Positions 35,738 through 44,712 of a DNA stretch of 45,855 nt are shown one piece after another. Numbering within the stretch: position 1 is the first letter of the stretch; the number at the start of each line of letters is the position of its first letter. A model generated the notes under the pieces. That model was not told where the DNA came from. It searched no databases and saw nothing but the letters and a program-made list of their open reading frames with translations. The position numbers and the translations under genes are program-made. The DNA comes from Planctomycetaceae bacterium (lineage in GTDB: Bacteria > Planctomycetota > Planctomycetia > Planctomycetales > Planctomycetaceae). The DNA lies in the NCBI GenBank assembly GCA_029243145.1, contig JAQWSQ010000168.1, positions 1 through 45,855 on the forward strand. Reading direction: 5' to 3'.

Positions 35738-37165
35738 TTAGATCGTCGAGGAATCGGGTGTCAGATATTTATCGACATCATTCGAGACGATCACACCGTA
35801 GTTCACGGCTCCCAACCATCCCGACATGATAATCCCGACAGAGCCGGCATGATAGAGGCCACCGATCTGTTCCGGGAGATCTTTACTGACTTGCAAACCC
35901 TCGAATTTCGTGCCAAACGAAGCGCCATTCCAGTGGCGTGTGTAATGCTCGAAGGTTCGCGGCGTGGAAGCCTCGATATGATCGACCTTCTGGCGGATAT
36001 TAGGGACGTACTGTTCGAGGCAATCGAGAGTCCCTTCGCAAAGTTCTGTTTTGTCTTTCTGATACTGCTCTTCCGAGAGATCGGCCCAGTCGCTGTAGTT
36101 GGCGTTGGTGGAAGAAACGACGAGATAGCGGTTGAGTTCTGGGCGGGTGCGCGGGTAGTAGAATGAGAATGTTCGACTACTAATATTTTTGCTCAGCATC
36201 GCTTCAATATCAAAACCACTGTGCTCCGAATGGAAGAGAAGATCTCCGACATCGTCGAATTCTTCCCCTTCTTTGAGGGCGATGTAAACCTGGCAACTGC
36301 TGTTGTTGAGGCGAACTGCTTCGACAGCTTCCACATACTCTTTATCGAGATTTTCTTTGCCGACGAGTTTTAAGATGGTTTGTTTCAGGTTGGCATTCGA
36401 GACGATCGCGTTACAGCCAATTCGTCGACCGTTCACAACAACTCCCGTGACTTTTCGATTGTCATCGAGTTCGATGTTTTCGACGAGAGAGCGGATACGA
36501 ATATCCACACCATTTTTTTCCAGCTCTGCCTTCATCAGGTCCACAAGATGGTCTGTGCCACCTTCAAAGGTGAAGACTCCCTTGTGCATAAAGTTGGAGA
36601 ACACAATTCCATATGTTATGGCCGGATCTTCCAAAGTTGACCCGTTCGCGTAAGTGATCGGCTCCATCAGCAAGCGGACCACGTCATCGCGACCCGGAAA
36701 AAATTGCTCGAACAACTCACGGACAGTCATCGATTGATCGTCGTAGAAATTCATGCTGCGAGCCTTATCGAAGAAAGCTTGCACCGTTTCCACCGAGATT
36801 CCGAACTTTTCGATCAGAATGTTCGTGAAGTCGTTTCGATCAAAAGTTGTGCGTAGCGAGAACTGAGGGTTCTCGAAACGAATCCCCTTAAGTTGCACAA
36901 TTTTGTCGGCGATTTCCTGCGTCCAATATTTTCGACAACTTTTGATCATACCCATCGGGAACCCGTGCAACGAGATATCAAAAATATGACCGTTACGACG
37001 TTTGAACCAAGTCGCCATTCCTCCGAGTTGGTAATGATGCTCGAGAAGGAGTACCGAATGACCGGCGCGTGCTAAAACATTGGCGGAAGTGAGCCCGCCA
37101 AGCCCGCTACCGATGACAACAACATCGTAATGGTCTTGGCAGCCTTTGAGAAAATCCTTAGCCAT
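35738..37165 (-). CDS. CrtI/CrtISO-like FAD-dependent oxidoreductase
   Basis: The 475-residue enzyme has the N-terminal FAD-binding motif [20 protein letters not shown] (about residues 15-34), [13 protein letters not shown], and the C-terminal phytoene-desaturase-type ending [19 protein letters not shown] (about 440-458). It belongs to the phytoene desaturase / carotenoid isomerase / retinol saturase superfamily, which acts on hydrophobic polyenes or acyl chains. No carotenoid gene (crtB, hpnC-E) is nearby. It lies about 2 kb from the acyl-assembly cluster at 39-44 kb, on the opposite strand, so a role on that product is a possibility but unproven. ATG at 37163-37165. Confidence 0.85.
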
Positions 37166-37692
37166 AGTGAGTCTACGCTGTCTTCAAGGTTCTGGATAAA
37201 TGGGTGTCTGTCTCAATCCGTTCTTTGACAAACGAAGATCGGCTCAGTTTAGAAAGGCGAGACAAAAAGTCCAACCAACGATTTCAGGAAGTCGCTCAGG
37301 CCTGATAATATTGTTGGGTTTCAATTGGCTTGTCGCATGACTTGTCGGTATTCGCATGAGCATGTATGTTGAGCGTTGTACCAAAAACACTTCGATATGA
37401 TGCCGCAGGGTGGAAATTGTGAGCAGTTCAGATGAACGGGGGTTTTGGGAGGCGTGAGAAATATTACCGATTATATCAAATAGTCAAGATATGAAGATTC
37501 TGGTAATTGCAACAAATAGGTATAATTTTGAGTGCGGACGGTTGAAGCCTCAAACTTTTCCTAGTATCCCTAGAGAGAGAGTTTGACAAAACTCAGCGAA
37601 GAAAACAGTCTGGTATGAGAAGAATGGGAAGCCCTTCTTCAAATAACTGATAGTTTTGTGTATGAAGCCGATTTGGTCAGGTCGGCAAGTTG
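37166..37692 (+). other. A+T-rich intergenic region
   Basis: About 530 bases without a supported gene. It must contain the promoter of the minus-strand FAD enzyme at its left end and part of the promoter of the small Cys-rich gene at its right end. The minus-strand frame at 37550-38014 overlaps that Cys-rich gene and is treated as a shadow. Confidence 0.5.
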
Positions 37693-37733
37693 TATAATAC
37701 AAAAGTGAGGGATGCACCGCTGCCGGTATCCCT
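37693..37733 (+). promoter_or_regulatory. TATAAT box and 5'-UTR hairpin of the Cys-rich gene
   Basis: A perfect TATAAT lies at 37693-37698. Only a poor -35 match is present (TTGGTC at 37673, spacing 14). About 10 bases downstream, where the transcript would begin, is a two-part hairpin: AGGGAT (37708-37713) with ATCCCT (37728-37733), and inside it ACCG with CGGT around a CTGC loop. A 5'-terminal stem of this kind could protect or regulate the mRNA. Confidence 0.55.
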
Positions 37734-37769
37734 TCAGCAAATGTCGGTAGCATAGAAGGAGTTTTTCCA

Positions 37770-38174
37770 ATGAAGAGCTTATTGAGTTTGTTGATGGTGA
37801 CTGCCATCATGGTTTCAGTTGCCGATGCACAACCCCCCAAGCCTGTGGCTGAGGGAACTGTAGTTGGCCAAGCTGTGGAACTATTCAATTGTGTTAAAAT
37901 TGAAGATCCTGAGAATATCGCACCTTGTGCGGTGACCAAGATCATCATGGTTCCCGATCCTTGTGCCTGCCGCGATCGTTGCGGTTGCTGTGAACCAAAA
38001 TGTGTTGCCATCAAGATTTGTGTTCCACCACCAAATCCATGTGCCTGTGGATGTGAAACACAAGAAGTCGTGAAGTGCAGAGACGGTGGACGTAAGCAGA
38101 AATACGACTACGGTAAGTATTCTGTTGAAATCACTGTTAAAGACGGTTATGTCAAAGTCGATTACGACGACTGA
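37770..38174 (+). CDS. Small secreted cysteine-rich protein
   Basis: The 134-residue product has a clear signal peptide (MKSLLSLLMVTAIMVSVADA). The mature part holds 13 cysteines, many in CxC, CC and CxxC spacings (PDPCACRDRCGCCEPKC; PPNPCACGCE), with Pro-rich flanks, then a charged Tyr/Lys/Asp C-terminus (EITVKDGYVKVDYDD). AAGGAG stands about 9 bases before the ATG. The gene has its own candidate promoter and a strong terminator, so it is probably a well-expressed monocistron. It could bind metal or form disulfide-linked envelope material; I recognise no family. The odd number of cysteines leaves at least one for metal or intermolecular bonding. Confidence 0.88.
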   Translation: MKSLLSLLMVTAIMVSVADAQPPKPVAEGTVVGQAVELFNCVKIEDPENIAPCAVTKIIMVPDPCACRDRCGCCEPKCVAIKICVPPPNPCACGCETQEVVKCRDGGRKQKYDYGKYSVEITVKDGYVKVDYDD

Positions 38175-38197
38175 TTGATCGCTAAAAGCAGACGTTC

Positions 38198-38233
38198 AAG
38201 CCGGTGACGAGAGATCGTGACCGGCTTTTTCTT
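38198..38233 (+). terminator. Strong Rho-independent terminator
   Basis: AAGCCGGT pairs with ACCGGCTT, extended by an inner ACG/CGT, and is followed by TTTCTTT. It ends the Cys-rich gene's transcript 24 bases after the stop. The reverse strand also has T residues beyond the stem only weakly, so it serves mainly the plus strand. Confidence 0.88.
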
Positions 38234-38262
38234 TGCGATATTCAAAGAGTATTGTCGCTCAG

Positions 38263-38733
38263 TTAGGACTTCATGAATTCCATTACTTGGTAGCCACTCT
38301 GCGACATTCCCAAATTCTGATAGACGTTTTGGGCACTCAGGTTGTGGCCTTCGACATACAATCGAATTCCCACGACATCTTCTCGCGTCTTCGCTTCTTC
38401 AAAGACAGTCTGATAGAGAGATTTGAATACGCCACGATTTCGCTGTTCAGGATGCACATACACGCTTTGGATCCACCAGATTTCACCGTTTCTCCAATCA
38501 CTCCATTCGAGCGTAATGAGCAATTGGCCAATCACTGCCCCTTTCTCACGAGCGATCAGGTATCTGCCACGTGATCGGTTTTCAAACAGCCCGCGCACTC
38601 CGCGAAGGACGATCTCAGGGTTGAGCATCTTCCCTTCAGTTTCTTCGGCCAACTGACAGTTGTAGTGGGCGAGTGTCTCAGCATCCTCAAGTCGTGCTGG
38701 CTCAATGTCAAAACTTTCTGGAGACTCGTTCAT
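38263..38733 (-). CDS. GNAT-family N-acetyltransferase
   Basis: The 156-residue protein shows the GNAT fold: an N-terminal helix region (ARLEDAETLAHYNCQLAEET), the central strands GAVIGQLLITLEW and WWIQSVYVHPEQRNRGVFKSL with the acetyl-CoA loop Q/RxxRGxx, and VVGIRLYVEGHNLSAQNVYQNLGM at the C-terminus, including the usual Asn-x-x-A-x-x-x-Y. ATG 38733 is preferred over a GTG 27 codons upstream because the extension precedes the conserved domain and lacks support. The substrate is unknown. It converges with the Cys-rich gene. Confidence 0.9.
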   Translation of the reverse strand: MNESPESFDIEPARLEDAETLAHYNCQLAEETEGKMLNPEIVLRGVRGLFENRSRGRYLIAREKGAVIGQLLITLEWSDWRNGEIWWIQSVYVHPEQRNRGVFKSLYQTVFEEAKTREDVVGIRLYVEGHNLSAQNVYQNLGMSQSGYQVMEFMKS

Positions 38734-38875
38734 AGTCCGTGGGAACTCGTTTCTCTTTAAATGAACTTCAATTCGGATATCCTCTGGAACGCTAAAAACT
38801 GTAGCGTTTTGCACGATTATAGGAACTCATCATCTCTTAATGACAAGAAATCCTCATGAATTATCATGTAAACCC

Positions 38876-38904
38876 TTGCTGTCATGAGAGAAAGGGAATA
38901 TGAA
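38876..38904 (+). promoter_or_regulatory. Candidate promoter of the acyl-assembly cluster
   Basis: TTGCTG (38876-38881), a 17-base spacer and TATGAA (38899-38904) form a reasonable housekeeping-type promoter about 200 bases before the first cluster gene. The palindrome TCATGA lies in the spacer, and a CATGA-atta-TCATG inverted repeat lies just upstream (38855-38868); these could bind a regulator. The rest of the 370-base gap from 38734 holds nothing else I can support. Confidence 0.4.
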
Positions 38905-39103
38905 GAGACACAAAGTAATGCTGCGATCGATTTGTGATCCAGTGAGACGGTCTTCAGTTTCAATGGAACTCGTCGCGAAGCTTCCCAATGGAGTCGCGAC
39001 GTTGATCATCGCATGGCTTTAGGTTGTGTTGAGACAGTGGGAAAACTATACTCACCCTCTTTTCCGGGGTTCAGCTCGTTGATCGTTTGAAAGATTCACC
39101 ACG

Positions 39104-39598
39104 ATGCGTTTTTGTCTGATTGACCAAATCACCGCGATCGAAGCCGGAAACTCGATTTCGGCCATCAAGAATCTCTCACTGGCTGAAGAATATCTTCAGG
39201 ATCACTTTCCGGGCTTTCCGGTCATTCCGGGAGTGTTGATGCTGGAAGCCATGGTGCAAGCCAGTTCCTGGTTGATGCATGAATCCAACGAGTTTCAATA
39301 TAGTACGATTTTGTTGAAGCAGGCGAAGGCGATTAAATTTAATCATTTTCTACAACCAGGGAAAACTTTGGTTGTCGAATCGAAGATACATAAGTCTGAA
39401 GGTGAAGAAGTGACCTTCAAAGCGAGCGGCACGGTTGATGACATTTCGACGGTGAGTGCACGGTTAACTCTCAAAGGTTTGAATCTGGTTGACCGCGATC
39501 CCTCATTGGCCTCTGCAGACGAACGAAACATGACTCACAACAAACAATTGTTTCGTCAATTGTGGAGTCCGAAAATGTCGGAGTCCTTAGAAGCTTAA
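39104..39598 (+). CDS. FabZ-like 3-hydroxyacyl-ACP dehydratase (first of two)
   Basis: The 164-residue hot-dog-fold protein carries the FabZ active site: DHFPGFPVIPGVLMLEAMVQ, with His34 and Glu48 spaced 14 apart exactly as His54/Glu68 in E. coli FabZ. It should dehydrate 3-hydroxyacyl-ACP to the trans-2-enoyl form. The last 40 residues are a polar extension beyond ordinary FabZ. It is the first gene of the cluster, 72 bases before fabG, and no strong ribosome site precedes its ATG. It shares the opening pattern of the second dehydratase (RFCLIDQI versus RWFWIDRF), so the two are old paralogues. Confidence 0.9.
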   Translation: MRFCLIDQITAIEAGNSISAIKNLSLAEEYLQDHFPGFPVIPGVLMLEAMVQASSWLMHESNEFQYSTILLKQAKAIKFNHFLQPGKTLVVESKIHKSEGEEVTFKASGTVDDISTVSARLTLKGLNLVDRDPSLASADERNMTHNKQLFRQLWSPKMSESLEA

Positions 39599-39670
39599 AA
39601 ATCGCAGTATTTTACACGCGCAATAGTTCACACACGCAATATCTATTTGAACGAAATTGAGAGCACAGTA

Positions 39671-40420
39671 ATGAGACTCGAAGGTCAAGTCGCATTGGTT
39701 ACCGGCGGAAGTCGTGGCATCGGTAAGGGAATTGTCGAGGCATTCGTCAAAGAAGGTGCCAAGGTCGCGTTTGTCTACAATTCGTCGAAAGAGGCTGCCG
39801 ATGTGATCGTCAGCGAACTCTCCGCCAATGGCGAAGTCTTTGCGATTCAGGCAGATGTGAAGTCCAAAGAAGCGGCCCAAAAAGCCGTCGATGAAGTTCT
39901 CGAAAAATGGGAACGGATTGATATTCTCGTGAATAACGCGGGAATCATTCGCGATGGATTGCTGGCGACGATGGATGAGGACGATTGGTGTTCCGTCATC
40001 GATACGAATCTCAATTCCGTTTACAATTTCACACAAAGTGTAATGCGTCCGATGATGTCACAACGCAGCGGACGAATTATCAACATGTCCAGTGTTGCCT
40101 CCGAGATGGGGAACCAGGGACAAACCAACTATGCGGCCTCTAAAGGCGGCATCAATGGATTTACAAAATGCCTGGCTGCGGAAGTAGGCCGTCGAAATAT
40201 TACGGTCAACGCGATTGCACCTGGCTTTATTGAAACAGACATGACGGAAGCCGTTCGTAACGCGGCTGAAGGGGAAATCAAGAAAGCGATTGCACTTCGC
40301 CGGTTGGGGAAACCTGAAGACATCGCGAGTACGGCCGTCTTTTTGGCCAGCTCTGACGCAAGTTACATCACGGGACAAGTCATCGAAGTTGACGGGGGAC
40401 TGACCCTCGGCGGTATTTAA
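39671..40420 (+). CDS. fabG: 3-oxoacyl-ACP reductase FabG type SDR
   Basis: The 249-residue short-chain dehydrogenase has the NADPH motif TGGSRGIG (11-18), NNAG (88-91), catalytic Ser141, Tyr154 and Lys158 (NYAASKGG), and the family end ITGQVIEVDGGLTLGG. It reduces 3-oxoacyl-ACP. The Tyr-x3-Lys spacing and FabG-like IAPGFIETDMT support an acyl-chain role over other SDRs. ATG 39671 fits the family start; an upstream in-frame TTG at 39647 is less likely. It lies between the first dehydratase and the acyl carrier protein. Whether it is also the housekeeping FabG cannot be told from this window. Confidence 0.93.
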   Translation: MRLEGQVALVTGGSRGIGKGIVEAFVKEGAKVAFVYNSSKEAADVIVSELSANGEVFAIQADVKSKEAAQKAVDEVLEKWERIDILVNNAGIIRDGLLATMDEDDWCSVIDTNLNSVYNFTQSVMRPMMSQRSGRIINMSSVASEMGNQGQTNYAASKGGINGFTKCLAAEVGRRNITVNAIAPGFIETDMTEAVRNAAEGEIKKAIALRRLGKPEDIASTAVFLASSDASYITGQVIEVDGGLTLGGI

Positions 40421-40513
40421 TTCAAAACCTGTTCGGCGATTGTGGTAACTTGTATTTGCTGCAATCGGCAGGTGAGCGAAACACGTTTGGGAAACCTTCA
40501 GGAGATTTTGCAG

Positions 40514-40903
40514 ATGCCCACGCAAGACGAGATTTTTAAGGTTGTACAGGAAACACTCGAAGACGCTCTTGGTGTCGACGATGATGAAGTCACGATGGAC
40601 GCGACTCTTCAGGGAGACCTGGGAGCAGAGTCGATCGACTTTTTGGACATTCTTTTCCGTCTCGAAAAAGGCTTCGACATCAAGATTCCTCGTGGAGAAT
40701 TGTTTCCCGAGAATTTGGCGAGGGCTGATTCCTCGTTCGTACAAGATGGAAAAGTGACCGAGAGTGGAATCGCTCAGTTGCGAGAAAAAATGCCACACGC
40801 AGATGTCGACAAGTTGGCCGAAAATCCGGCTGTCGCAAACATCGCAGACCTGTTCACCGTGCGTATGATGGTGAATTTCCTCAATCACAAGCTGAACGGG
40901 TAA
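40514..40903 (+). CDS. Acyl carrier protein with internal insertion
   Basis: The 129-residue acidic protein is longer than the usual 75-85. The N-terminal part (about 1-63) is a good ACP: a first helix, then LGAESIDFLDILFRLEK with Ser40 as the phosphopantetheine site, then FDIKIPRGEL. Instead of the short link to the last helix, about 40 extra residues (about 65-112, including SSFVQDGKVTESGIAQLREK) precede FTVRMMVNFLNHKL, the final helix. The usual Asp before the serine is Glu. AGGAG lies 9 bases before the ATG. It should carry the growing chain made by the adjacent enzymes. Confidence 0.92.
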   Translation: MPTQDEIFKVVQETLEDALGVDDDEVTMDATLQGDLGAESIDFLDILFRLEKGFDIKIPRGELFPENLARADSSFVQDGKVTESGIAQLREKMPHADVDKLAENPAVANIADLFTVRMMVNFLNHKLNG

Positions 40904-40950
40904 GTCTCCCGATCAGTTTTTGTCGTCTCCATAAAGAGTGAGTTCTCCCG

Positions 40951-41439
40951 ATGCGCTGGTTCTGGATCGATCGATTCATCGAATTTGAAAGTGGTTCTTA
41001 CGCCAAGGCTGTCAAGAATGTCAGCCTTTCGGAAGAGCATATGCACGATCATTTTCCGGGCTTCTCAGTCATGCCCGGTTCGTTGATGATCGAGGGGCTG
41101 GCACAGACGGGGGGAATTCTTCTGGGAGAAAAGAATGACTTCAAATATGCTGTCATTCTCGCCAAAGTCCCAAAAGTGACATTTCATAGCTGGGCAACTC
41201 CCGGCGATTCTCTGGTCTACACCGCTCGCCTATTGGATGATCGGGACGAGGGAGGAACCGTCGAGTGTACGGCTCATGTTGGTGAGCGATTGGTGGCTGA
41301 GGCAGAAATTGTATTCGCCCACTTGGATCCTGCTGATCCCACTCTGGGAGCGATTGACCAGAAAAACTTCGTTTTCTCGATGAATTTGCTCGGGATTCTT
41401 GAAGTTGGGAAAGCAGGAGACGGAGCGGAAAAACTGTAA
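40951..41439 (+). CDS. FabZ-like hot-dog dehydratase (second of two)
   Basis: The 162-residue protein keeps the FabZ pair His34 and Glu48 in HDHFPGFSVMPGSLMIEGLAQ, again 14 apart. The Pro-Val-x-Pro-Gly-Val of the first paralogue is changed to Ser-Val-Met-Pro-Gly-Ser, and the following helix differs (TGGILLGEKNDFKYAVIL), so the acyl pocket probably differs. It may act on a different chain length, serve as isomerase (FabA-like), or form a heteromer with the first. It lies 47 bases after the ACP and 169 before the ketosynthase. Confidence 0.9.
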   Translation: MRWFWIDRFIEFESGSYAKAVKNVSLSEEHMHDHFPGFSVMPGSLMIEGLAQTGGILLGEKNDFKYAVILAKVPKVTFHSWATPGDSLVYTARLLDDRDEGGTVECTAHVGERLVAEAEIVFAHLDPADPTLGAIDQKNFVFSMNLLGILEVGKAGDGAEKL

Positions 41440-41608
41440 CAGCAGTCATTTTCGCACCGAATTGCTTTTTCTCGACAAATGAAACTCCCTGGAACCTGTT
41501 TTCATAGGGGGGGTGTTCAGCTATACTTGATCCCATCAGATTATAAGCTCCTGTTGAAAGAACGGTTGGGGAACTGTTCGACGACGGGATACATAAAGAA
41601 ACTGGGCA

Positions 41609-42886
41609 ATGAAACGTCGAGTGGTAGTGACCGGTATCGGCTGTGTAACACCGATTGGTAATGATGTCGAAACGATGTGGGCATCCATTTGCGCTGCTAA
41701 AAGCGGCGTGGGGCCAATCAGACATTTCGATGCCTCTAATTTTCCGACCAAATTCGCGGCTGAAGTTAAAGGTTATGACTTCAGCCATTACGTGGACGAC
41801 CCGGAGGCCTTTGAATTCGCGGGCCGTAATATTCGGTTCGCAATTGGAGCGGCTTCTCAGGCGGTGACCGATTCGGGCATCATGGGTTCCGTTGACCCCG
41901 CTCAGTTTGGTGTCTATCTCGGGGCAGGTGAAGGACAGCAGGACTTCCTGATGTTCATGAACATGATTGCCCAGGCTCAGCAGAATGGCGAAGTCGATCT
42001 TGCCAAGTTTACGAAGTACGGTTTGGAGAATTTGCATCCCCAAACTGAACTCGAGCAAGAACCGAATATGCCAGCCGGACATCTCGCTGGTTTGTTTAAC
42101 GCTCAAGGCCCAAACCTAAACTGCCTCACAGCATGTGCGGCATCGAGCCAAGCGATTGGAGAAGCGACCGAAATCATTCGTCGTGGCGATGCAGAAGTGA
42201 TGCTCTCTGGTGGTGCTCACACGATGATTCATCCGTTCGGCGTGACGGGCTTCAATCTCTTAACGGCGTTGTCTACCCGGAATGATTCCCCTGAGACGGC
42301 ATCTCGTCCGTTCGATAAAACTCGGGATGGGTTCGTTCTCGGAGAAGGTGCCGGAATGGTGATCCTCGAAGAGTACGAACGAGCCAAAAGAAGAGGCGCG
42401 AATATTTACGGTGAACTGGTTGGATTTGGTTCGACGGCTGACGCTTATCGAATCACCGATATCCATCCAGAAGGTCGTGGTGCGGTCGCCTGCATCGAAA
42501 TGGCCTTGAAAGACGCTGGTCTCAACACCGATCAGATCGATTACATCAATGCCCATGGAACGAGTACCTCGGTCAACGACCGGGTGGAAACCATGGCTGT
42601 TAAAAAATCTCTCGGAGCCGATGCCGCCAAGACACCGGTTTCGAGTATCAAGAGTATGATGGGACATCTGATTGCGGCTGCGGGAAGTGTCGAAGCGATC
42701 ATTTGCCTGTTGGCGATGCGAGACGGAGTTCTGCCACCGACCATCAACTACTCCACACCCGATCCCGATTGCGATCTGGATTACATCCCGAACGAAGCGC
42801 GTGATGCGAAAGTGCAAAGAGCTCTTTCCAACAGCTTTGGTTTCGGCGGTCAAAACATTACTTTGATTTTCAACGAATGTGCCTGA
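41609..42886 (+). CDS. fabF: FabF-type beta-ketoacyl-ACP synthase
   Basis: The 425-residue condensing enzyme has the Cys-His-His triad: Cys176 (LTACAASSQAIGEA), His316 (NAHGTST) and His353 (SMMGHLIAAAG). The spacings of 140 and 37 residues equal those of E. coli FabF (163/303/340). The N-terminal half carries an insertion of about 13 residues before the catalytic cysteine (around GQQDFLMFMNMIAQAQQNGE). It elongates an acyl-ACP with malonyl-ACP by decarboxylative Claisen condensation. Retention of the active-site Cys rules out a chain-length-factor role. No KS-beta partner, malonyltransferase or enoyl reductase is seen here, so malonyl-ACP must come from elsewhere and enoyl products might not be reduced. 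Confidence 0.95.
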   Translation: MKRRVVVTGIGCVTPIGNDVETMWASICAAKSGVGPIRHFDASNFPTKFAAEVKGYDFSHYVDDPEAFEFAGRNIRFAIGAASQAVTDSGIMGSVDPAQFGVYLGAGEGQQDFLMFMNMIAQAQQNGEVDLAKFTKYGLENLHPQTELEQEPNMPAGHLAGLFNAQGPNLNCLTACAASSQAIGEATEIIRRGDAEVMLSGGAHTMIHPFGVTGFNLLTALSTRNDSPETASRPFDKTRDGFVLGEGAGMVILEEYERAKRRGANIYGELVGFGSTADAYRITDIHPEGRGAVACIEMALKDAGLNTDQIDYINAHGTSTSVNDRVETMAVKKSLGADAAKTPVSSIKSMMGHLIAAAGSVEAIICLLAMRDGVLPPTINYSTPDPDCDLDYIPNEARDAKVQRALSNSFGFGGQNITLIFNECA

Positions 42887-42941
42887 GATAGTTTGGCGAA
42901 TTGTTAGCCGGATTGATTACTTCTTCTAATGGAATGTCACA

Positions 42942-43937
42942 ATGACGTGGCTGATCGCAGAAATCCTGATTTCTCTCATCGTTGTCGGCTATCTCGTTGC
43001 CGAAAGCAAGATCGTACGTCTGGGGATGTCGATTTTTGAAAGTTCTCCCATGTTTCTGCCTCAAGAGGCAAATCCCGACGAGGATGCCGAAATCGTCGAG
43101 ATCCTTACGGAGGATGGAGTTCGTCTTTCCGGGTGTCTCTATACTCGATCCGAATCCGAGAGTCGCGGAGTGATCATTTTTTGTCCAGAGTTTGGGGCAA
43201 ATAAGTGGAGTTGGAAAAATTACTGCTACGGATTGTGGGAATCCGGATTTGATATTTTGGCAATCGACTTTCGTAATCAAGGTCAAAGCGAACGAGTAGA
43301 CTCTTATCGTGAACTTCACTGGGCCACAGAATTCGAAGTGACCGACGCAAAAGCAGCGATTCGATATGTCAAATCTCATCCCGAACTGGCAGAACGCCCG
43401 ATTGGCATCATGGGTGTGAGTCGTGGTGGCGCGACGGCCTTGGCCGTGGGGGCCGATCATCCTGATGTGGAATTGGTCGTCACTGATTCCGCCTTTCCGA
43501 CCGAGCCGTTGATGATGTTCTTTGTCGATCGTTGGTTCAAAGTATATGCTCCTCAATGGATGTACAATCTCGTCCCTCGCTGGCATACCCATTTCAACCT
43601 CAAATTGGTGAAAAAATTCAGTCAATGGTCGCGGAACTGTGAATACGCGGAAATCATTCCTCGGTTCAAGCGAATGGCTGACCGCAAGAAAGTGTTGCTG
43701 ATTGCCGGGTCACGCGATTCGTTTGTCGATCTTAAGGTCTCTCAGCAACTCGAGCGTTCTTTAGGCGATAATTGTGAAGATTTGTGGATCGTTCAAGGAG
43801 CCAAGCACAATATGGGGAATGCCGTTGCGGGGGATGAATATCAAACTCGCATCGAGTCATTTTTTTCCGCAATGTCTCCTGTTCACGTACCGCCTGTTCG
43901 AGTACCTGATGAGGCCACTGCCTCATCGCCTCTTTAA
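42942..43937 (+). CDS. Membrane-anchored alpha/beta hydrolase
   Basis: The 331-residue protein has an N-terminal hydrophobic helix (about residues 3-20) that likely anchors it, then an alpha/beta-hydrolase domain: FCPEFGANKWSW near the oxyanion strand, GIMGVSRGGATAL with nucleophile Ser160, an acid in AGSRDSFVD and His in VQGAKHNMGN. It lies 55 bases after the ketosynthase on the same strand, so it is probably in the same operon and may release or transfer the acyl product as a thioesterase/acyltransferase; this is inference. The nearest named relatives are the BAAT/dienelactone-hydrolase-like hydrolases. Confidence 0.85.
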   Translation: MTWLIAEILISLIVVGYLVAESKIVRLGMSIFESSPMFLPQEANPDEDAEIVEILTEDGVRLSGCLYTRSESESRGVIIFCPEFGANKWSWKNYCYGLWESGFDILAIDFRNQGQSERVDSYRELHWATEFEVTDAKAAIRYVKSHPELAERPIGIMGVSRGGATALAVGADHPDVELVVTDSAFPTEPLMMFFVDRWFKVYAPQWMYNLVPRWHTHFNLKLVKKFSQWSRNCEYAEIIPRFKRMADRKKVLLIAGSRDSFVDLKVSQQLERSLGDNCEDLWIVQGAKHNMGNAVAGDEYQTRIESFFSAMSPVHVPPVRVPDEATASSPL

Positions 43938-43998
43938 GATGAATATTGATAATTACTCGATATGATTTTTGTCATCTGTCATTTATTCGAGTACCAGT

Positions 43999-44712
43999 AT
44001 GTCCTTTCTGATTACCAATGATGATGGAATCGAAGCACCCGGTCTCGCAGCTCTGCGCCAAGTGGCTGTGGATTTCGGTGAAGTGATTGTTGTCGCTCCC
44101 GATCGTCAGCATTCTGGTTGCGGCCATCGAATCAGTGAAGATGGCCCGATTTCCATCGACTCTCAAGAAAATTTGCGATATGCAATCGGAGGAACGCCCG
44201 CAGACTGTGCGAGAATTGGTCTGGCACATCTCGCACCGGAAACGGAATGGGTACTTTCTGGAATCAATGCAGGCGGTAATCTGGGCTGCGATGTTTTTAT
44301 GTCGGGGACTGTTGCCGCGATTCGTGAAGCTACATTGATGGGAAAACGTGGTATTGCATTTTCACAATATCGCAACGGCATGAACTCTCCCTTAGATTGG
44401 GACCGAGTTGCAATTTGGACGAAAGCAGTTCTCGAACGATTGTTGAGCGAGCATTTGCAGGCGGGTGAATTCTGGAACGTGAATTTTCCAGATACTGATT
44501 TGGGAGAAGGTCTCCCGGAGATCGTTTTTTGCCCGGTCGATGTCGAGCATTATCAATTTAAGTGTGAATTGCAGGAGGAGGGGTTGGTCTATCGCAGTGA
44601 TTACCAGCAACGACCTCGAACACCCGGACGGGATATTGATGTTTGCTTTGGGGGTAAAATCTCTATCTCAAAACTGACTGTCTGTAGCAATGCGCCGGGA
44701 ATGAACCAGTGA
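43999..44712 (+). CDS. surE: 5'-nucleotidase/exopolyphosphatase-like SurE
   Basis: The 237-residue protein begins SFLITNDDGIEAPGLAAL, with the metal-binding Asp pair of SurE, followed by VVAPDRQHSGCGHRI, GTPADCARIGL and GINAGGNLGCDVFMSGTVAA. It is an acid phosphatase acting on 5'/3'-nucleotides. ATG 43999 fits the family start; an in-frame start ten codons upstream is unlikely. The C-terminus is shorter than in many homologues and ends in CSNAPGMNQ. It follows the hydrolase by 61 bases and may be cotranscribed by chance. Confidence 0.95.
   Translation: MSFLITNDDGIEAPGLAALRQVAVDFGEVIVVAPDRQHSGCGHRISEDGPISIDSQENLRYAIGGTPADCARIGLAHLAPETEWVLSGINAGGNLGCDVFMSGTVAAIREATLMGKRGIAFSQYRNGMNSPLDWDRVAIWTKAVLERLLSEHLQAGEFWNVNFPDTDLGEGLPEIVFCPVDVEHYQFKCELQEEGLVYRSDYQQRPRTPGRDIDVCFGGKISISKLTVCSNAPGMNQ

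What the first reader, a model, noticed from the sequence alone, without database searches (positions are those of the whole stretch)
38855..43937. Compact secondary acyl-assembly line: two FabZ-like dehydratases, FabG, long ACP, KS, anchored hydrolase
Six co-directional genes encode all activities for chain extension, keto-reduction and dehydration, but no enoyl reductase. Repeated cycles would tend to leave double bonds, giving a polyene or unsaturated acyl chain, and the membrane-anchored hydrolase could release it. Aryl-polyene clusters and the anammox gene sets proposed for ladderanes (from memory) combine FabF/FabZ/FabG/ACP modules in similar ways. The product here is unknown, and this is my best candidate for an undescribed system in the window.
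Basis: partly seen in the sequence, partly recalled or inferred. Interest (0 to 1): 0.72.

Follow-up and report, generated by a model that had tools for sequence, protein, structure and literature searches.

The report
Planctomycete core second fatty-acyl assembly operon
A compact set of genes that builds fatty-acid-like chains on its own special carrier protein, apart from the ordinary fat-making genes, is kept by almost every relative of this bacterium that was checked, so it probably makes an unidentified but basic lipid rather than a rare pigment.

Summary
In detail: six co-directional genes (39104-43937, not from 38855) encode FabZ-like DH1, FabG, a long ACP, FabZ-like DH2, an intact FabF-like KS and an N-terminally hydrophobic hydrolase. 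It is not the only fab set: plsX-fabD-acpP-fabF, two other FabZ, two FabI-family and FabH-like genes lie elsewhere in the genome. But it is not a sporadic secondary cluster. The ACP, with a conserved internal insert, is in 146 of 148 genomes of the class and 88 of 392 of the phylum (110 bits or more). DH1-(FabG)-ACP-DH2 is kept in 101 of 105 loci. In 25 of those 101 a KS-like gene without the active-site Cys (22 with Asp/Glu) sits in the operon. The window operon lacks it, but the genome holds two such genes elsewhere, in the same clade. I read it as a core, dedicated KS plus KS° type II acyl system with the KS° encoded in trans. The product is unknown. "No enoyl reductase, so a polyene" is not supported: canonical FabI is present in trans, though no reductase gene tracks the operon. 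Aryl-polyene and ladderane membership tests fail. New variant of type II FAS/PKS.

The parts
39104..39598 (+). DH1: FabZ-like hotdog dehydratase, His and Glu present, no FabZ N-terminus, C-terminal helix
   Evidence: PF07977 68.3 bits; below FabZ equivalog cut-offs (96.4 against 113; 89.1 against 155.15); AlphaFold2 pLDDT 88.0, pTM 0.84, best PDB fold Campylobacter FabZ 3d6x; His/Glu in 88 of 97 DH1 rows, His/Gln in 9
39647..40420 (+). FabG-type 3-ketoacyl-ACP reductase (KR)
   Evidence: TIGR01830 312.2 bits, over its cut-off of 297.75; sits between DH1 and ACP in 43 of 101 loci
40442..40903 (+). Dedicated acyl carrier protein with an internal insert of about 45 residues; the likely start is the ATG near 40514 (frame opens with a GTG at 40442)
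   Evidence: PF00550 38.9 bits; alignment A1, carrier Ser in an invariant DLGAESIDFLDI-type stretch, GELFPE invariant; AlphaFold2 pLDDT 93.1, pTM 0.87; Foldseek best match 1x3o, an 80-residue ACP
40951..41439 (+). DH2: second FabZ-like dehydratase, an old paralogue of DH1
   Evidence: PF07977 57.2 bits; DH2 rows are one side of a branch, SH-aLRT 99 (quick tree); His/Glu in 91 of 101 DH2 rows, 5 with a gap and 5 with another letter at the His column
41609..42886 (+). FabF-type ketosynthase with Cys-His-His intact
   Evidence: TIGR03150 505.4 bits, over its cut-off of 493.75; active-site columns C, H, K, H; set apart from the genome's own fabF in the trees
42942..43937 (+). Alpha/beta hydrolase with a hydrophobic N-terminus and GVSRGG nucleophile motif; possible thioesterase or release enzyme
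   Evidence: PF12146, PF00561 and others; sequence read; a homologue near the operon in 34 of 101 loci

Best explanation
A dedicated second type II acyl-building system that is a core trait of this class of Planctomycetota. Acyl chains ride on the insert-bearing ACP. The operon KS condenses them with malonyl-ACP, probably as a heterodimer with a KS-like partner lacking the Cys (KS°, chain-length-factor-like), which in this genome is encoded elsewhere (C194:32025-33317 and/or C111:5307-6614). FabG reduces, the paired FabZ-like DH1 and DH2 dehydrate, and the hydrolase may release or move the chain. Reduction, if any, is by FabI in trans. The product is most likely a long or unsaturated acyl chain for a basic envelope lipid, not a lineage-specific pigment. 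Shown: gene content, intact catalytic residues, wide conservation, conserved order, separate housekeeping genes, KS°/KS neighbours in relatives and KS° genes in trans here. Inferred: KS:KS° pairing, DH1:DH2 cooperation, product, release step.
For: Long ACP in 146 of 148 class genomes, 135 of 136 good ones. Order kept in 101 of 105 loci. KS° in the operon in 25 of 101 loci: 11 D, 11 E, 2 N, 1 S at the Cys column. In a careful tree the 25 operon KS° and the two dispersed KS° of this genome are one side of a branch (100/99), and the two lie with the 15 operon KS° of the class (100/97). In a quick, larger tree 80 of 82 KS° rows have D/E, 2 have S, none C (18 of its 120 rows are copies). The C194 KS° is kept at 436 bits or more in 38 of 41 family genomes. 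In 18 chosen genomes whose operon is only DH1-ACP-DH2, a KS matching the window KS at 428-534 bits lies elsewhere in 18 of 18, with a further KS-like gene beside it in 14 of 18; the one read has Glu at the Cys place. A separate housekeeping set exists.
Against: No product, transcript or protein-interaction data. The trees do not say which of the two dispersed KS° pairs with the operon KS: the C111 copy shares a contig with plsX-fabD-acpP-fabF, and in seven of eight loci picked for a KS beside KS° that KS was fabF-like, so KS° may have a general role such as priming. In the quick tree the family's KS° group among themselves rather than with operon KS° (SH-aLRT 89). In five loci the operon has two Cys-bearing KS. 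Of the SDRs scored, the operon FabG is the best in the genome, so part of the set may serve housekeeping FAS.
Confidence: 0.6

Rival explanations
1. Polyene maker: a highly reducing type II PKS-like line without enoyl reduction, giving conjugated polyenes, as in aryl-polyene or ishigamide-type systems.
For: KR, two DHs and an own ACP; a KS with a Cys-less partner in relatives and in trans here; no enoyl-reductase gene was seen among the labelled genes of the 101 loci, though no reductase profile was run on them; a second FabI paralogue does not track the operon.
Against: Canonical FabI is available in trans, and housekeeping fabI, fabZ and fabG are also dispersed, so absence from the operon says little. 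The KS is FabF-like by score: FabF chains 387 bits, actinorhodin KS 305, 4ewg (an ApeR relative by PMC8358021) 226, 6kxd (ishigamide KS by recall) 215. No starter-unit, glycosyl or exporter gene among the ten proteins scored at 35738-44712. Near-universal, unlike a pigment.
Confidence: 0.3
2. Anaerobic-type unsaturated fatty acid route: DH1 or DH2 acts as a FabN-like dehydratase/isomerase and the KS extends the cis-3-enoyl chain.
For: Two FabZ-like paralogues beside a FabF; some FabZ relatives isomerise (recalled).
Against: PF00487 desaturases in 59 of 59 class genomes, four matches in this one (one with an internal stop), so mono-unsaturated acids need no second route. The dedicated ACP and KS° are not explained.
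Confidence: 0.15
3. Very-long-chain elongation like mycobacterial FAS-II (KasA/KasB, HadABC, MabA, AcpM) or rhizobial AcpXL clusters (both recalled), with FabI in trans; the chain goes to lipid A or another envelope lipid.
For: Same parts list: long ACP, KR, two FabZ-like DHs, KS plus a second KS-like protein; core conservation.
Against: No acyltransferase or lipid-A gene is conserved beside the operon (no other gene cluster in more than 8 of the loci). The ACP extension is internal, not a tail.
Confidence: 0.3
4. A rearranged part of ordinary FASII, with the operon FabG as the cell's only FabG and KS as a plain second FabF.
For: KS and FabG pass FabF and FabG equivalog cut-offs; the next two FabG candidates scored do not.
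Against: A separate plsX-fabD-acpP-fabF cluster, two other FabZ, FabI; FabG is in the operon in only 43 of 101 loci; the ACP fails all 13 listed NCBIfam ACP cut-offs.
Confidence: 0.15

Closest known systems
Aryl polyene (APE) type II PKS, ApeO-ApeC/ApeR (PMC8358021, passages seen)
   Same: KS with a non-condensing partner, KR, dehydratase pair, ACP; type II and iterative
   Different: ApeC is about half-size, while KS° here are full length; APE has two ACPs and a second FabB-like KS; no aryl-starter genes seen here; near-universal in the class rather than patchy
Proposed ladderane FASII clusters of anammox bacteria (PMC2649909, parts 1-4 of 7 read)
   Same: Extra FabZ, FabG, ACP and FabF paralogues; FabF paralogues without the Cys; a CrtI-like gene nearby in this genus
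   Different: No radical SAM or methyltransferase gene among the ten proteins scored around the operon; the CrtI-like gene is not conserved with it
Cys-less FabF paralogues of Rhodopirellula baltica (Asp163 and Glu163, Table 2 of PMC2649909)
   Same: The same replacement at the same residue, in the same phylum; very likely the KS° family described here
   Different: That paper did not link them, in the parts read, to a DH1-ACP-DH2-KS operon
Housekeeping type II FAS (FabF, FabG, FabZ, AcpP)
   Same: Chemistry; KS and FabG score as equivalogs
   Different: Long ACP, paired divergent DHs, KS° partner; a separate housekeeping set exists
Mycobacterial FAS-II (KasA/B, HadABC, MabA, AcpM; recalled)
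   Same: Parts list
   Different: Gene order, internal rather than C-terminal ACP extension, KS° lacks the Cys; not tested further

Membership tests
Aryl polyene cluster | KS with an adjacent, half-size CLF (ApeC) | tested here: not met
   No CLF gene in the window operon; KS° elsewhere in the genome are 431 and 442 aa; half-size ApeC from passages of PMC8358021
Aryl polyene cluster | Two ACPs | tested here: not met
   One ACP in the operon; three PF00550 matches in the whole genome, the others at C111 and C156
Aryl polyene cluster | KR and a dehydratase pair | tested here: met
Aryl polyene cluster | Aryl-starter genes beside it | tested here: not met
   None among the ten proteins scored at 35738-44712; the rest of the genome was not searched for them
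Ladderane cluster | Radical SAM and methyltransferase genes in the cluster | tested here: not met
   None among the ten proteins scored
Ladderane cluster | Phytoene-desaturase-like gene in the cluster | tested here: not met
   CrtI-like gene at 35738-37165 (-), but in 95 loci compared it is beside the operon only in the window and L077
Type II PKS with KS-CLF pair | KS next to a KS homologue lacking the Cys | tested here: not met
   Not met in cis in the window; met in 25 of 101 related loci and in trans in this genome
Type II PKS with KS-CLF pair | KS and CLF form a heterodimer | not testable with these tools
   Single-chain folding only
Housekeeping FASII | Sole fab set of the genome | tested here: not met
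Housekeeping FASII | FabZ and AcpP equivalog scores | tested here: not met
   FabZ models 96.4/89.1 and 98.7/95.2 bits against cut-offs 113/155.15; no ACP model reached its cut-off
Housekeeping FASII | FabF and FabG equivalog scores | tested here: met
   TIGR03150 505.4 of 493.75 and TIGR01830 312.2 of 297.75; FabG also fails NF004197 (307.9 of 332)
Mycobacterial-type FAS-II | Makes very long chains with an own enoyl reductase | not tested
   Chain length cannot be read from sequence here; two FabI-family genes exist in trans

The most novel reading that the evidence does not exclude
The class has a previously undescribed, essential or near-essential second acyl-assembly system. It is built on a new ACP type with a folded insert that recruits a DH1:DH2 dehydratase and a KS:KS° condensing pair, and it makes a still unknown core lipid (polyunsaturated or very long) of the planctomycete envelope.
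Probability: 0.3. Interest if true: 0.82.

Novelty: new variant of a known kind. Interest (0 to 1): 0.6.

Why it matters
Planctomycetes are known for unusual envelopes (recalled). A lipid-building system kept in 146 of 148 sampled genomes of the class, with its own carrier protein and no assigned product, would point to a missing core lipid and give a marker gene set to test. It would also join the Cys-less FabF paralogues noted in 2009 to a concrete operon, which bears on how anammox and other planctomycete lipids arose.

Tried and rejected
Rejected: (1) primary and only FAS, because of the separate housekeeping genes. (2) Patchy secondary cluster, because. (3) CrtI-like gene and surE as parts: only in the window and its closest relatives. 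(4) Unsaturated-acid route as the reason for the operon: weakened by desaturases in 59 of 59 genomes, not excluded. (5) A second FabI (C38) as dedicated enoyl reductase: at 300 bits or more in 26 of 59 genomes; by family f1 14 of 15, f2 9 of 9, f4 1 of 1, f3 1 of 2, f102 1 of 3, f5 0 of 14, f101 0 of 13, f103 0 of 1, f104 0 of 1, though each of these 59 has the long ACP. (6) I first took the second-best hits of the C194 KS° in families f5 and f101 for a second dispersed KS°; one search shows that those read (L233, L247, L248, L250, L251) carry Cys, so I dropped that claim. Likewise 26 loci with operon KS° became 25, because one (L035) is a KS fragment cut by the contig end.

Led nowhere: promoter and terminator scan, no more sites than in shuffles; PDB search of the desaturase beside KS° (no match); paper searches gave no description of this operon (90 returned only Rattray 2009; 49 one unrelated paper; 57, 72, 91 none).

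Rows dropped before counts: 116 loci were labelled and 11 with an ACP score under 110 bits were left out of the 105. L031 and L068 appear to be the same contig, and L023 is a near-copy of the window, so 105 loci are not 105 independent genomes. Some loci end at contig edges. The tree left out L135 and the KS of L023-L037 that bear Cys.
Full report
What is there. The finding's six genes exist and are co-directional. They run from 39104 to 43937; 38855-39103 is the spacer after a divergent GNAT gene. DH1 and DH2 are FabZ-like hotdog proteins that fall below the FabZ equivalog cut-offs. They share the catalytic His and Glu, lack the FabZ N-terminus and carry C-terminal extensions. FabG and KS pass FabG and FabF equivalog cut-offs. 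The KS keeps Cys, both His and Lys. The ACP is about 128 residues. AlphaFold2 gives a confident four-helix ACP (pLDDT 93.1, pTM 0.87) with extra structure inserted before the last helix. Its best PDB fold match is an ordinary 80-residue ACP, and sequence searches find only the ACP core.

Is it the only fab set? No. The genome (5.2 Mb, 232 contigs, 97.6% complete) has plsX, fabD, acpP and fabF together on C111 (plsX and fabD named from their translated starts), two other FabZ-family genes at C72 and C136, a canonical FabI at C216 (307 bits, below NCBIfam cut-offs; Tyr-x6-Lys read), a more divergent FabI-family protein at C38 and FabH-like proteins at C5 and C193. One caveat: of the operon FabG and two other SDRs scored with NCBIfam, only the operon FabG passes TIGR01830; most of the 25 SDR matches were not scored, so the operon FabG may also be the housekeeping one.

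How widespread. With a profile of 15 ACPs (A1), 146 of 148 genomes of the class have the long ACP at E <= 1e-25, 135 of 136 among good assemblies, mostly one copy each. In the phylum draw 130 of 392 match at 1e-10; counting only matches of 110 bits or more gives 88 of 392, 40 of them in the class. I could not search outside the phylum with a profile. The one scan of the genome collection, with the plain sequence, gave 15 loci, 14 of them titled as planctomycetes and one only 'bacterium'.

Architecture. Of 116 loci labelled with profiles, 105 have an ACP over 110 bits; 101 of these have DH1-(FabG)-ACP-DH2 in that order. FabG is between DH1 and ACP in 43, a Cys-bearing KS follows in 63, a hydrolase homologue is near in 34, and 34 have nothing labelled after DH2. 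No other gene family recurs in more than 8 of the first 95 loci. In 25 of the 101 a KS-like gene lacking the Cys (11 Asp, 11 Glu, 2 Asn, 1 Ser) is in the operon, directly after DH2, usually followed by the KS. Five loci instead have two Cys-bearing KS. In 18 chosen genomes with a bare DH1-ACP-DH2 triad, a KS like the window's (428-534 bits) exists elsewhere in 18 of 18, with a third KS-like gene beside it in 14 of 18. The only one read has Glu at the Cys place (aligned by eye).

The missing partner. The window genome has two Cys-less KS genes, at C194:32025-33317 (Glu, His, Asn) and C111:5307-6614 (Glu, Asn, Asn). In a careful tree of 84 KS, 25 operon-borne KS° and these two form one side of a branch with support 100/99, and the two sit with the 15 operon KS° of the class at 100/97. 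The C194 gene is kept at 436 bits or more in 38 of 41 genomes of the family; the next tier starts at 388 bits. In 13 of 15 genomes with an operon KS° that gene is the best match of the C194 protein; in the other two (G395, G410) the best match lies elsewhere. Against a simple one-to-one story, the quick tree of 120 rows groups the family's two KS° with each other and with those of other families rather than with operon KS° (SH-aLRT 89). The C111-type KS° is also beside fabF in seven of eight loci that I picked for having a KS next to it. So KS° may serve both condensing enzymes, or have a priming or decarboxylating role. Rattray and co-workers already listed two Cys-less FabF paralogues (Asp163, Glu163) in Rhodopirellula baltica (PMC2649909, Table 2).

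How it most likely works. Shown: parts, catalytic residues, conservation, separate housekeeping genes. Inferred: malonyl units are loaded on the long ACP (FabD in trans), KS with KS° condenses, FabG reduces, DH1/DH2 dehydrate, FabI in trans may or may not reduce, and the hydrolase may release. That no enoyl reductase lies in the operon is weak evidence for a polyene, because the genome's FabI, FabZ and the plsX-fabD-acpP-fabF genes are themselves scattered. No reductase tracks the operon: the C38-type FabI is in 26 of 59 class genomes, absent from all 27 sampled in families f5 and f101 that have the long ACP. Desaturases are in 59 of 59, so an anaerobic unsaturated-acid role is not needed. Near-universal, mostly single-copy presence argues for a basic lipid over a pigment. 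Confidence is about 0.85 that it is a dedicated second system, 0.55 that KS works with a KS°, and 0.3 for a polyene.

Comparison. Aryl-polyene clusters share KR, DH pair and a KS with a non-condensing partner, but have a half-size ApeC, two ACPs and a second KS (PMC8358021, passages); these were tested here and not met. Ladderane clusters add radical SAM and methyltransferase genes (PMC2649909 parts 1-4; PMC4790861 abstract and two sections); none is among the ten proteins scored around the operon. A 2023 catalogue of KS-CLF pairs includes some from planctomycetes (PMC10132072, passages), so such pairs in the phylum are not unknown. I found no description of this operon in ten paper searches, in a library that lacks most subscription journals.

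Verdict. New variant of type II FAS/PKS; interest 0.6.

Noticed in passing
L018:7475-10465 (own genome C156): A second unusual set: a Cys-bearing KS, a short ACP match and a CrtI-like oxidoreductase in a row, away from the window.
   Followed up: partly
L289, L290, L291, L292 (genomes G121, G339, G381, G369): A Cys-less KS sits beside a PF00487 desaturase in these four loci, which I picked for that neighbourhood. It may hint at the lipid involved.
   Followed up: partly
L253, L255-L260 (family f1): A KS without Cys lies next to a fabF-like KS; in L253 this is the plsX-fabD-fabF cluster. It suggests that housekeeping FAS has a KS° partner too.
   Followed up: partly
L155 (own genome C38): A divergent second FabI-family protein with Tyr-x6-Lys, kept in 26 of 59 class genomes with a sharp family pattern.
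   Followed up: partly
L135 (G354): A larger cluster with several KS (two without Cys), DHs, FabG and an ACP of 112 bits, resembling aryl-polyene or ladderane sets.
   Followed up: no
window 37770-38174: Small Cys-rich, apparently secreted protein without a Pfam or NCBIfam match, found beside the operon only in the window and close relatives.
   Followed up: no
nine DH1 rows: The catalytic Glu of DH1 is Gln in 9 of 97 rows; which lineages these are was not worked out.
   Followed up: no
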